Part shown: piece by piece, positions 9,151 through 16,714 of the stretch
Numbering within the stretch: position 1 is the first letter of the stretch
How the letters are laid out: the number at the start of each line of letters is the position of its first letter
Source: Methylohalomonas lacus
GTDB taxonomy: Bacteria; Pseudomonadota; Gammaproteobacteria; Methylohalomonadales; Methylohalomonadaceae
Assembly (NCBI RefSeq): GCF_024808875.1
Contig: NZ_JANUCT010000002.1
Location: 1-64,000 of the forward strand
Direction: 5' to 3'
DNA length: 64,000 nucleotides
Position numbers and translations under genes: made by a program
The notes under the pieces: generated by a model
The model's database searches: none
The model's input: the letters and a program-made list of their open reading frames with translations, nothing else
Told to the model about the DNA's origin: nothing

Positions 9151-9764
9151 CGCAAGAGAACAACCTGACGCCCGCCGACAACCGCTTTCGCGGCTACCTG
9201 CCGGTCGTGGTCGATGTTGAAACCGGCGGTTTCAACTCGAACACGGATGCGCTGCTGGAAATCGCCGCGGTGGTGGTGTCCATGAACGGCGACAGGCAGT
9301 GGCGGCCAACGCGTACGATCGCCTATCACGTCAAGCCGTTCACCGGCGCCAACATCGAACAGGCGGCGATCGATTTCAACGGTATCGACCCGTATCATCC
9401 GCTGCGCCCGGCGATCCCGGAAAAGGACGCCCTCGGCCGCATCTTCACGGCGGTGCGTACGGCGATGAAGGAAAACAACTGCAAGCGCGCCATCCTTGTC
9501 GGCCACAACGCCGCCTTCGATCTCAACTTCCTTAACGCGGCGGTCGAGCGCTGCGGCATCAAGCGCAGTCCGTTTCACCCGTTCAGCACCTTCGACACCG
9601 TGTCACTGGCGGGGCTCGTTTACGGCCAGACAGTACTGGCACGCGCGATCGAGGCTGCCGGCATCGAATGGGAAAGCGATCGCGCGCACTCGGCCGCCTA
9701 CGACGCCGAAAAGACCGCCGAACTGTTCTGCGCCATCGTCAATCAGTGGGATCATAAAGCGTAG
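9129..9764 (+). CDS. rnt: Ribonuclease T
   Basis: 211 residues, close to E. coli RNase T. A DEDDh 3'-5' exoribonuclease that trims tRNA and other stable RNA 3' ends. The first Asp/Glu pair is in VVDVETGGF (about residues 28-36). A second Asp is in [10 protein letters not shown], and the catalytic His/Asp in [16 protein letters not shown] near the C-terminus. It starts inside pyrC (22-base overlap), so expression is probably coupled. Its stop is only 15 bases from the transposase stop of the IS110 element, yet the protein looks complete (ends NQWDHKA). Confidence 0.94.
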
Positions 9765-9779
9765 ATACTCTGTTGCGCG

Positions 9780-10772
9780 TCAAGTTTTCAGGTGGCACTC
9801 ACTGAAGAGTTTGGCGCTATCGAACGGCGTATTGTCCCGCAGGCAGGCCCAGAGTCCGGTCAGGTATTTGCGCATGACGGCACACAGGGCCTGTATTTTC
9901 TTTTTGCCGCGCTGGATGAGCGATTCATAAAAGGCTTTGGCGCGCGGGTCATGGCGGACGGCGCTCAGTGCCGGCATGAACAGTGCGGCGCGCAGATAGG
10001 CATTGCCGGTTTTGGCCAGGCGGCCGGGCTTATGGACGCTGCTGCCGGACTGGTTCAGGCGGACATCAAGACCGGCATGACGGCTGACCTGGGCCGCCTT
10101 GAGGTGGTCCGGCAACACTGCCAGTTCAGCCAGCAGGGCAACGGCACTGGCCTGGCCGATGCCTTTGGCGGTGGTCATGACCTGGAACTGCTGCGCCAGC
10201 ACGGGGCATTCATTGATAAGCTCGCGTGCGGCCTGTTGCAGCCGGTCGATGCGCTGGTCGAGTGCGTCGATGGCCTGCTGTTCGTCGTCGATGAGCAGTT
10301 GCGGGGTCATCTGTTTGGCGGTCAGCGCATGCAGGCGGTTTTTGGCCTGGGTGCGGGCGCCGGTCAGGCGGTTGATTTGGCGACCGATATCGCGCAGCGC
10401 CAGGTGGGTAGCCTCGGGCGGCGTCCAAAGCGGCGGCGTCATGCGCGCGCCGTACTCGGCCAGCAGCGCGGCATCGACCGGGTCGGTCTTGCTGCCGGTG
10501 AGCTTGAGCTGGGCGAAGTGGCGGAAGCTCTTCGGATTGATGACCGACACCGGCAAACCCGCCTCGGCCAGAGCCACGGCGAGGTCGAGATAATAGATGC
10601 CGGTGGCTTCGACAACGATATGGGTCGGCCTGAGCGCCTGCAGTTGCTGAACCACTTGGGCCTGGTCGGCGGGCGTTTGGGCGAACGTCTGCGCCGGCTG
10701 GTTACGGCCGTTGTCGCGGCAGACGAGGTCAAAGGAACGGGCCGCGATATCGATACCGACAGAAACGGTCAT
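9780..10772 (-). CDS. IS110-family transposase (DEDD/RuvC-like plus Tnp_20 serine domain)
   Basis: 330 residues. The N-terminal DEDD domain begins VGIDIAARSFDLV (first Asp), followed by Glu in VVEATGIYYLD and Asp residues in KTDPVDAALLAEY. A coiled-coil segment spans roughly 130-190. The C-terminal transposase_20 domain shows the helix-hairpin-helix GIGQASAVALLAEL and the proposed catalytic serine in NQSGSSVHKPG. The ATG at 10772 is chosen over an upstream ATG at 10805 because CGGAGATAAAGCCC places a GGAG just before it and the family starts with M-x-x-x-V-G-I-D. The enzyme looks intact and potentially active. Confidence 0.93.
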   Translation of the reverse strand: MTVSVGIDIAARSFDLVCRDNGRNQPAQTFAQTPADQAQVVQQLQALRPTHIVVEATGIYYLDLAVALAEAGLPVSVINPKSFRHFAQLKLTGSKTDPVDAALLAEYGARMTPPLWTPPEATHLALRDIGRQINRLTGARTQAKNRLHALTAKQMTPQLLIDDEQQAIDALDQRIDRLQQAARELINECPVLAQQFQVMTTAKGIGQASAVALLAELAVLPDHLKAAQVSRHAGLDVRLNQSGSSVHKPGRLAKTGNAYLRAALFMPALSAVRHDPRAKAFYESLIQRGKKKIQALCAVMRKYLTGLWACLRDNTPFDSAKLFSECHLKT

Positions 10773-10785
10773 GGGCTTTATCTCC

Positions 10786-10975
10786 GGTGAAAGATTGCGT
10801 AACAATAGCTACCGGTTCCCCGACCTCGTACTTGATGCGGCCTCGACCTTGCCATGCGAAGTCCCGTCCAACGGGCTTCCGGATACTCTTCGAGGTTGGC
10901 AATGAGGCGGGGAGCCACTCTACGGAACGAGATCAGGCCAAGCCTGTCTCCAGGAGCGAACGGCTTCCCCGATAA
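10786..10975 (-). ncRNA. Candidate IS110 bridge (guide) RNA
   Basis: The roughly 190 bases upstream of the transposase are rich in helices on the minus-strand transcript. These are an outer stem of 10962-10971 with 10908-10916 (one bulge); inside it the hairpin 10929-10950 (GAGA/TCTC and CAGGC/GCCTG, one bulge); and a second hairpin at 10858-10879 (GAAG/CTTC and CCCGT/ACGGG, one bulge). TTGCCA at 10849 can pair with TGGCAA at 10897, and CCTCGA at 10841 with TCGAGG at 10890; these two pairings cross. Position, size and two-lobed layout match described bridge RNAs. The loop guide sequences were not assigned. Confidence 0.5.
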
Positions 10976-11039
10976 CTGATAAAACTCTAGCAGCAGCATG
11001 GCCGGTAACATACAAGGAGCGACGACCCCGCCGCGAAGA

Positions 11040-11375
11040 TTTCTGGTTAACTGGTTAATTGGTAACTGGTGATTGGCAAGGCCGGCTCCTGCGGGCGCGA
11101 ATCAACTAACAGCGCGTAGCGCCACCTTCTTCCTTCCCCCTTGACGGGGGAAGGTACGGATGGGGTGTGGTTGGCGACTGGTGATTCGTAATTAGTGGTT
11201 GGCAAGGCCTAACACCTGTGGAGCGGATTATAATCCGCGAACCATCAGTGCATGTTTCGCCGAATAAATTCGGGTCCTACGGATGTGGTTAACTGGTTAT
11301 TGGTATCGAATTTATCCTTGATACTGAAACAACGCCGGTCACGCTATTTTCAATCACCCATCACCAGTCAAGATA
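11040..11375. repeat. Composite dispersed repeat (types C, D inverted, C, E, C) between the IS and mtaD
   Basis: Together with the IS left end this accounts for the gene-free stretch 10773-11394. 11042-11078 is type C (CTGGTTAACTGGTTAATTGG). 11085-11174 is type D in reverse orientation relative to 6326-6416, with the hairpin CCTTCCCCC-TTGAC-GGGGGAAGG. 11166-11203 is type C again. 11217-11280 is type E with two small REP-like hairpins, GCGGATTATAATCCGC (11223-11238) and a CGCCGAATAAATTCGGG stem. 11287-11375 is the type C tail including GGTCACGCTATTTTCAATCACC. No open frame of interest was seen. Confidence 0.78.
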
Positions 11376-14101: not shown

Positions 14102-16714
14102 ATGGCCGAATCCGATATCGCGCGTAGCGTTTCCCCCGTCAATATCGAAGACGAAATGCGGCAGTCCTACATGGACTACGCCATGAGCGTGATCGTTGGC
14201 CGGGCCTTGCCGGACGTACGCGACGGCCTCAAGCCGGTGCACCGGCGCGTGCTCTACGCCATGCACGAGGCCGGCAACGACTGGAACAAACCGTACCGCA
14301 AGTCGGCGCGCGTCGTCGGTGACGTCATCGGTAAATACCACCCGCACGGCGACTCGGCCGTCTACGACACCATCGTGCGCATGGCGCAGCCATTTTCGCT
14401 GCGTTACGTGCTGGTCGATGGCCAGGGCAACTTCGGTTCGGTCGACGGCGACGCGCCGGCAGCCATGCGTTACACCGAGGTGCGCATGGCGCGGATTGCC
14501 CATGAGATGCTCGCCGACATCGATAAGGAAACCGTCGATTTCGTGCCCAACTACGACGGCAGCGAAAGCGAGCCGTCCGTTCTGCCCGCGCGGATTCCCA
14601 ATCTGCTGGTCAACGGCAGTTCCGGCATTGCCGTCGGCATGGCGACCAACATTCCGCCGCACAACCTCAACGAGGTGCTGCGCGCCTGCATCCAGCTGAT
14701 TGACGATCCGGCGACGCCGATCGAGATGCTGATGAAACTGGTGCCGGGCCCGGATTTCCCGACTGCCGGAATCATCAACGGCACCAGCGGCATCCACGAG
14801 GCCTACCTGACCGGTCGCGGCCGCGTGGTCATGCGCGCACGCACGACCATCGAGGAGGATGCCGACAGCGGCGCCGCGCGTATTGTCGTCAGTGAGCTGC
14901 CGTACCAGGTCAACAAGGCGCGGCTGCTGGAAAAGATCGCCGAACTGGTCAAGGACAAGAAGCTCAGCGGTATCCGCGAGCTGCGCGACGAGTCCGACAA
15001 GGAAGGCATGCGCATGGTCGTCGAGCTCAAGCGCGGCGAGAACGCGGATGTCATCCTGAACAATCTGTACAAGCACACCGCCATGCAGAGCGTATTCGGC
15101 ATGAACATGGTGGCGCTGGAAGATGGCCAGCCGCGGCTGCTGAACCTCAAGCAGCTGCTCGAGGCGTTCATCCGTCATCGCCGCGAGGTGGTGACCCGGC
15201 GCACCGTCTACGAGCTGCGCAAGGCGCGCCAGCGCGCCCACGTGCTGGAAGGCCTGGCGGTGGCGCTGGCCAACATCGACGAGGTCATCGAGCGCATCAA
15301 GAACTCGCCGACCCCGGCGGAGGCCAAGACCGCGCTGCTGGAGCCGATCTGGAATTCCGGCATGGTCAGCGAGATGCTCGGCCGCGCCGGCGCCGCGGCG
15401 TCGAAGCCGGACGACCTGCCGCCGGAGATCGGCCTGCAGGACAACGGCTACCAGCTGTCCGACGCGCAGGCGCAGGCGATCCTGGATCTCAAGCTGCAGC
15501 GGTTGACCGGCCTGGAACAGGACAAGATTCTGAAGGAGTACGGCGAGCTGCTCGATACCATTGCCGAGCTGCTCGACATCCTCGCGCGCCCGGCGCGGCT
15601 GATGGAAGTCATCCGCAATGAACTCAGCGAACTCAGCGAACGCTTCGGCGACGCGCGCCGTACTGAGATCCAGGAAGACGCCTCGGATCTCAGTATCGAG
15701 GACCTGATCACCGACGAGGATGTCGTCGTCACCCTGTCGCATGCCGGCTACGCCAAGCGCCAGCCGATCTCGGACTACCGCTCGCAGCGGCGTGGCGGCC
15801 GCGGCAAGTCGGCAACGACGATGAAGGACGAGGATTTCATCGACAAGGTGTTCATCGCCAGCACCCATGACACGGTGCTGTGCTTCTCCAGTCGCGGCAA
15901 ACTGTACTGGCTCAAGGTATACGAACTGCCGCAGGCGACGCGCACGGCGCGCGGCAAACCGATCGTCAACCTGTTGCCGCTGGACGAGGGTGAACGCATC
16001 AACACGCTGTTGCCGGTGCGTGAGTACAGCGACGACAAGTTCGTGTTCATGGCTACCGCCGACGGTACGGTCAAGAAGACGCCGCTGACGGCGTTCTCGC
16101 GGCCGCGGCCGTCCGGCATCATCGCCATCGACCTGGCCGAGGACAACTGGCTCATCGGTGTCGAGCTGACCGACGGCAAGCAGGACGTCATGCTGTTCAG
16201 CAATGCCGGCAAGGCGGTGCGCTTCAACGAGCAGACCGTGCGCGCCATGGGGCGTACCGCGCGCGGCGTGCGCGGCATCGGCCTGGCCGCCGACCAGCGC
16301 GTCATCTCGCTGCTGGTACCGTCACCGGGCTGCTCGGTACTGACGGCGACCATGCACGGCTACGGCAAGCGCACCGATACCGACGACTACCCGGCCAAGG
16401 GCCGCGGCACCCAGGGCGTGATCTCGATCAAGACCAGCGAGCGCAACGGCGAGGTCGTCGGTGCCATCTGTGTCGCCGAAGATGACGAGGTCATGCTGAT
16501 CAGCGATCGCGGTACCCTGATCCGCACGCCGGTGCGCGACGTGTCGGTGCTGAGCCGCAATACCCAGGGCGTGCGCCTGGTCAGCCTGAGCGAGGGTGAA
16601 CGCCTCGCCGGCCTGCAGCGCATTACGCCGGAAGAGGAAGCGATCGAGGCCGTGCCGGCGGCGGACAATACCACGGAACAAGCAGAAAGCGACGAGGATA
16701 GTGAGCGTGAATAG
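14102..16714 (+). CDS. gyrA: DNA gyrase subunit A
   Basis: 870 residues. The catalytic subunit of gyrase that cuts and rejoins DNA. The winged-helix/tower part is residues 1-500 with the active-site tyrosine Y124 in [10 protein letters not shown]. The C-terminal beta-pinwheel carries the GyrA box QRRGGRGK (about residue 560). The quinolone-resistance region reads [10 protein letters not shown], with serine and aspartate at the positions equivalent to E. coli S83 and D87, so no classical resistance change is present. The acidic tail ends SDEDSERE. The serC start overlaps the stop. Confidence 0.98.

What the first reader, a model, noticed from the sequence alone, without database searches (positions are those of the whole stretch)
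10786..10975. A bridge-RNA-like fold upstream of an intact IS110 transposase
The roughly 190 bases between the transposase start and the left end of the element hold two nested/adjacent hairpin groups on the same strand as the gene. There is an outer stem (10908-10916 with 10962-10971) around a bulged hairpin (10929-10950), and a second bulged hairpin (10858-10879). Two six-base pairings (10841/10890 and 10849/10897) cross each other and could be a pseudoknot or a switch. IS110 recombinases are known to be guided by a bispecific RNA from this end. The transposase keeps its DEDD residues and catalytic serine, so this may be a working programmable element of an undescribed subtype.
Basis: partly seen in the sequence, partly recalled or inferred. 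Interest (0 to 1): 0.62.

Follow-up and report, generated by a model that had tools for sequence, protein, structure and literature searches.

The report
IS621-like bridge-RNA transposon targeting REP repeats
This is an intact jumping gene of the IS110 family whose upstream guide RNA can be read base by base: one loop matches the repeat it jumped into and the other matches its own ends, and in about 60 relatives the guide changes together with the target; it also carries a conserved extra RNA tail, absent from the best-studied relative, that can refold the guide.

Summary
A second copy (97%) in the same genome and relatives in other genomes fix the element at 9765-11016 (1252 bp) between two CT cores. 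It sits in a REP-like repeat, exactly at the rnt stop codon. The 244-nt left end holds an IS621-type bridge RNA. The target loop has LTG TCGCTCCT (10952-10959), which matches the left target TCGCTC-CT exactly, and RTG CGTAG (10920-10924). The donor loop has LDG AGAGTATC (10882-10889) and RDG CATGGCAAG (10848-10856). Across 57 elements, natural guides match their own targets at 296 of 399 positions, against a shuffled maximum of 223. Stems covary strongly. A junction promoter (TTGACG-N17-TATGTT) forms only in the circle. New: 3' of the RNA end expected from IS621, a tail (10808-10827) pairs back onto the target-loop stem, with three coincident pair switches at one position plus two at the adjoining helix on the transposase tree. 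IS621 lacks it.

The parts
9765..11016 (-). complete IS110-group insertion sequence, 1252 bp (one core copy included)
   Evidence: ends fixed by comparison with a 97% copy at another site of the same genome and with relatives sharing CT-TGTATG...AGTAT-CT
11015..11016 (-). left CT core dinucleotide
9763..9764 (-). right CT core; read on the + strand these two bases are the last two of the rnt stop codon TAG
9780..10772 (-). transposase/recombinase, 330 aa, D8 E55 D97 D100 S242 intact
   Evidence: PF01548 3.8e-27, PF02371 1.7e-18; ISCro4 9.1e-46 and IS621 1.6e-40 in the PDB; residue alignment
10773..11016 (-). left end (LE), 244 nt, encodes the bridge RNA and the tnp leader
10841..11004 (-). predicted bridge RNA (about 164 nt), from just after the junction -10 box to the 3' end of the DBL stem
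   Evidence: inferred by alignment with IS621 (L044; bRNA limits from PMC11208158); model R1 match to 10812-10971, E 3.6e-39 (the window is one of the model's own sequences)
10952..10959 (-). left target guide TCGCTCCT (target-binding loop)
   Evidence: 8/8 match to the left target plus core; single occurrence in the element; guide-target permutation
10920..10924 (-). right target guide CGTAG
   Evidence: reverse complement of CT-ACG
10882..10889 (-). left donor guide AGAGTATC
   Evidence: 8/8 match to the right end AGAGTAT-C of the element
10848..10856 (-). right donor guide CATGGCAAG, pairs discontiguously with CTTGTATG
   Evidence: homologues read CATCACAAG or CATACAAG here
10929..10950 (-). 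TBL inner hairpin with bulged A
   Evidence: 5 of 7 pairs with two-sided changes
10858..10879 (-). DBL inner hairpin with bulged A
   Evidence: 6 of 7 pairs with two-sided changes
10841..10895 (-). DBL outer stem CCTCGA (10890-10895) / TCGAGG (10841-10846)
   Evidence: 4 of 6 pairs with two-sided changes
10908..10971 (-). TBL outer stem: arms 10908-10916 and 10962-10971 with bulged A, as at IS621 A43
   Evidence: inner GCC/GGC has a GUC/GAC compensatory case in L170, L173, L181, L187; outer GGGG/CCCC nearly invariant
10818..10827 (-). tail GAGG-T-CGGGG, pairs with CCCCG-CCTC (10904-10912), competing with the TBL outer stem
   Evidence: G-C 44, A-T 17, 2 exceptions of 63; three joint switches on the transposase tree; CCTC/GAGG, CCCT/AGGG, CCTT/AAGG
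10808..10815 (-). tail CCGGTAGC, pairs with GTTATCGG (10969-10976): closing stem P1
   Evidence: own-arm pairing 64/72 against shuffled mean 55.9, p 7e-4; TTGG/CCAA and CTGG/CCAG types
9778..9783 (-). -35 box TTGACG of the circle-junction promoter, overlapping the tnp stop codon
   Evidence: 17 bp from TATGTT once the ends are joined; same layout in relatives
11007..11012 (-). -10 box TATGTT of the circle-junction promoter
11017..11037 (+). larger part of the broken REP-like repeat, GAGCGACGACCCCGCCGCGAA (left target); its GTAG part is at 9761-9764
   Evidence: unbroken GTAGGAGCGGCGACCCCGCCGCGAA copies elsewhere in the genome (L068, L071)

Best explanation
The region is the left end of an intact IS110-group insertion sequence of the IS621 kind. 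When the element excises as a circle, its joined ends create a sigma70 promoter (TTGACG-N17-TATGTT) that transcribes the left end. The RNA folds into a target-binding loop and a donor-binding loop. The target loop (TCGCTCCT plus CGTAG) pairs with REP-like repeats of the form GCTC-CT-ACG, and the donor loop (AGAGTATC plus CATGGCAAG) pairs with the element's own joined ends AGAGTAT-CT-TGTATG. The DEDD/Ser recombinase then joins target and donor at the CT core, so the element inserts into REP repeats, here at the rnt stop codon, which it rebuilds. Shown here: ends, core, empty-site repeats, guide matches, guide-target coevolution, stem covariation, intact active site. Inferred by homology: transcription, RNA-protein binding, catalysis. 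In addition, the leader just downstream of the guide RNA carries a conserved tail that pairs with the target-loop stem; most likely it makes the full-length transposase message fold differently from the free guide RNA (inferred, and much less certain than the rest).
For: Second copy and ends; unbroken repeats, one (L075) identical to the rebuilt target of copy 2. LTG 8/8 and LDG 8/8 matches, each single in the element; both together in 5e-5 of shuffled left ends. Guide versus own target in 57 elements: 296/399 matches, shuffled mean 186, maximum 223, 0/20000; RTG 10/20000. Stem covariation. Junction promoter in the relatives. Active site. Direct comparison with IS621 DNA (L044; its protein matches PDB 8wt6 at 3.7e-210).
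Against: No expression or activity data. Fold energy alone is unremarkable. The 5' stem-loop of IS621 is weak or absent in this copy. Beyond the core only 3 bases of the right target match the RTG, and the RDG deviates from the clade consensus. With two good copies and one fragment, activity may be low at present.
Confidence: 0.95

Rival explanations
1. The left-end structure is mainly a regulatory 5' leader of the transposase mRNA (as the folded 5'-UTR of ISPpu9), not a guide RNA.
For: A conserved tail pairs with the leader; ISPpu9 tnp has a 244-nt folded 5'-UTR (PMC8450116).
Against: Guide segments match target and donor and coevolve with natural targets; a leader has no reason to track the insertion site.
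Confidence: 0.03
2. The tail pairing (10904-10912/10818-10827 and P1) is the only functional fold, part of an extended bridge RNA of this clade, and the IS621-like outer TBL stem does not form. (This rivals only the switch part of the best explanation, not the guide part.)
For: The tail pairing has coincident compensatory switches, the outer TBL stem has none; the tail fold is preferred in most full-length predictions.
Against: GGGGA/UCCCC with its bulged A is nearly invariant and matches the IS621 TBL stem with flipped-out A43; the tail pairing leaves no obvious need for all of that 5' arm.
Confidence: 0.3
3. Chance hairpins in GC-rich DNA next to a dead element.
For: z-scores near -1.
Against: Covariation in 67 sequences, guide-target coevolution, open reading frame with all catalytic residues.
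Confidence: 0.01

Closest known systems
IS621 (Escherichia coli, IS110 group; PDB 8wt6; L044)
   Same: CT core; LE starts CT-TGTAT, RE ends AGTAT-CT; LE-encoded RNA with target loop then donor loop; LTG/RTG/LDG/RDG layout with discontiguous RDG; bulged A in TBL stem; junction promoter; insertion into REP repeats
   Different: 32% protein identity; different REP target; LE 244 nt with a 68-nt leader after the DBL, of which about 20 nt pair back to the TBL stem and to P1, whereas in IS621 the ATG directly follows the DBL stem; 5' stem-loop weak here
ISCro4 (PDB 9t56)
   Same: closest solved recombinase by sequence
   Different: its RNA was not compared here
ISPpu10 / ISPpu9 / ISPa11 (REP-targeting IS110-family elements, PMC1525189)
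   Same: insertion at a fixed point in REP repeats
   Different: ISPa11 is IS1111 type with the RNA downstream of tnp (PMC11187229); sequences not compared here
ISEc21 (IS110 seekRNA, PMC11187229)
   Same: upstream non-coding RNA, junction promoter, guide order, natural redirection of the target in a relative
   Different: different target; a 74-nt predominant RNA form is reported

Membership tests
IS110 family | DEDD RuvC-like domain plus C-terminal domain with conserved Ser | tested here: met
   PF01548 and PF02371; D8 E55 D97 D100 S242 invariant
IS110 family | insertion at a short core without other duplication | tested here: met
   2-bp CT core, two sites compared
IS110 group (versus IS1111) | long non-coding end upstream of tnp | tested here: met
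   LE 244 nt, RE 15 nt
IS1111 group | long right end carrying the RNA | tested here: not met
   RE is 15 nt and the RNA lies in the LE
IS1111 group | subterminal inverted repeats of 7-17 bp | not tested
   no 7-bp repeat seen by direct inspection of the two ends; no tool run for it
IS621-type bridge RNA | two internal loops matching target and donor, target loop first | tested here: met
IS621-type bridge RNA | conserved, covarying stem-loops | tested here: met
IS621-type bridge RNA | 5' stem-loop | tested here: inconclusive
   clear in L018 and L013, weak in the window
IS621-type bridge RNA | promoter formed at the circle junction | tested here: met
   TTGACG-N17-TATGTT
IS621-type bridge RNA | RNA binds the recombinase and is needed for recombination | not testable with these tools
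   needs biochemistry

The most novel reading that the evidence does not exclude
In this clade the bridge RNA and the transposase message are one transcript with two mutually exclusive folds. A conserved leader tail captures the 3' arm of the target-loop stem in the full-length message, so that only shortened RNA ending near 10841 acts as a guide: a built-in switch between making the recombinase and arming it.
Probability: 0.4. Interest if true: 0.7.

Novelty: new variant of a known kind. Interest (0 to 1): 0.45.

Why it matters
It gives a ready set of natural, differently programmed IS621-like elements (34 distinct left target guides among 57 guide-target pairs) in gammaproteobacteria, with targets predicted and testable, and so candidates for programmable recombination. 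It also raises a testable question for the whole family: how one transcript is shared between guide RNA and recombinase mRNA.

Tried and rejected
Rfam search of 8-14 kb: only one match, a snoRNA family far below its gathering score, nothing in the element. Pseudoknot from 10849/10897: only in this genome's copies, rejected. Viral-contig search with a conserved left-end motif: 14 chance hits, none an IS110 left end. Viral-contig search with the protein alignment: only ~30% relatives, whose flanks do not match the RNA model beyond chance level. E. coli genomes by DNA: no match. Plasmid relatives at about 40% identity were fetched but not analysed. Folding energy as evidence: not significant. Ribosome-site masking by the tail: the presumed ribosome site (GGAG, 10782-10785) lies outside the tail helices, so simple occlusion is not supported.

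Full report
What is there. The gene on the minus strand (10772-9780) is an IS110-family recombinase with both family domains. Its DEDD residues and serine are kept in an alignment with IS621. A whole-genome search found a 97% copy at G000:C9 (L009) and a broken third copy on C25. Laying the two good copies side by side fixes the ends: in gene orientation, target ...GTCGCTC-CT-[TGTATG ... AGAGTAT]-CT-ACGCTTT for the window and ...AGTCGGCTC-CT-[...]-CT-ACGGGAA for the copy. The element is 1252 bp, window 9765-11016, with a 2-bp CT core. Removing it restores GTAG-GAGCGACGACCCCGCCGCGAA, one base away from REP-like repeats that stand unbroken elsewhere in the genome (L068, L071). The target rebuilt for the copy is identical to the unbroken repeat L075. 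In the window the core falls inside the rnt stop codon TAG, which the element rebuilds.

Guides. Following the published IS621 rules (PMC11208160; PMC11208158), the first loop should hold a copy of the left target with core and the reverse complement of core with right target; the second loop should do the same for the donor (joined ends). The left end holds TCGCTCCT (10952-10959, 8/8 with the left target), CGTAG (10920-10924), AGAGTATC (10882-10889, 8/8 with the donor) and CATGGCAAG (10848-10856, discontiguous with CTTGTATG). Each 8-mer occurs once in the element, and both occur together in 5e-5 of dinucleotide-shuffled left ends.

Relatives. Protein and genome searches gave elements at 45-69% identity. 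An RNA model (R1) then found the same left end in 59 of 311 genomes of one gammaproteobacterial order. Across 57 distinct guide/target pairs the left target guide matches its own target at 296 of 399 positions; 20,000 reshufflings average 186 and never exceed 223. For the right guide the observed value is reached in 10 of 20,000. For example G246 has guide CCCGACCT and targets CCCGACCT (six copies with readable ends), L088 has TTCGCCCCT and TTCGCCCCT, L103 has TTCGAACCT and TTCGAACCT. These counts treat elements as independent, which related elements are not, but the guides differ between close relatives and follow the targets. This is the decisive support for a working, naturally reprogrammed guide system.

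Stems. On 9 sequences 17 of 34 pairs show two-sided changes, against 3.6 in shuffles; on 67 distinct sequences 20 of 26 pairs do (that alignment was fitted to the model, so it leans towards it). Energy alone is not remarkable. The bulged A residues of the IS621 structure have counterparts in both hairpins and in the TBL stem (my reading).

Promoter. Joining the ends creates TTGACG-N17-TATGTT. The -35 overlaps the transposase stop codon, and the layout is kept in relatives with 17-18 bp spacing; the integrated flank offers no comparable -35.

The tail. RNAalifold unexpectedly paired the TBL 3' arm with sequence downstream of the donor loop. IS621 has no such sequence: its start codon follows the donor-loop stem directly (L044). 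In 63 elements the junction pair is G-C in 44, A-T in 17 and otherwise in 2, and the adjoining helix is CCTC/GAGG, CCCT/AGGG or CCTT/AAGG with three exceptions. On a transposase tree of 43 elements, both sides of the junction pair change three times and the joint state also three times; the helix shows two joint changes. A closing stem P1 (10969-10976/10808-10815) is also supported, more weakly (p 7e-4). The tail pairing excludes the outer part of the IS621-like TBL stem, and full-length leaders prefer it in most predictions. Whether this is a switch, or simply the fold of this clade's RNA, cannot be settled by sequence.

Verdict. A canonical IS621-like IS110 element with a readable bridge RNA and a REP target; the new part is the conserved leader tail.

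Noticed in passing
window 9761-9764: The IS inserted exactly at the rnt (ribonuclease T) stop codon; the duplicated core AG rebuilds the TAG stop, so the host gene is not lengthened.
   Followed up: yes
window 11043-11197: The flank next to the IS is a patchwork of short dispersed repeats with some 40 matches (about 73-96% identity) elsewhere in the genome.
   Followed up: no
L010 (G000:C25, about 14726-15280): A third, broken copy of the element (fragments of the transposase, no left end matched) in the same genome.
   Followed up: no
L053 and L054: Left ends cut off inside or just after the target loop, with no transposase match in the fetched stretch; possible remnants or deletions near guide sequences.
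   Followed up: partly
L018, L022, L023, L025-L028 (genome G246): Seven copies of one relative in one genome; the six with readable ends sit in CCCGAC-CT-ACA sites, a different target from the window's, matching their changed left guide.
   Followed up: yes
L029 (Vibrio alginolyticus conjugative plasmid pVb1796): A 53% relative with an intact-looking bridge RNA on an IncC conjugative plasmid, a possible vehicle for spread.
   Followed up: no
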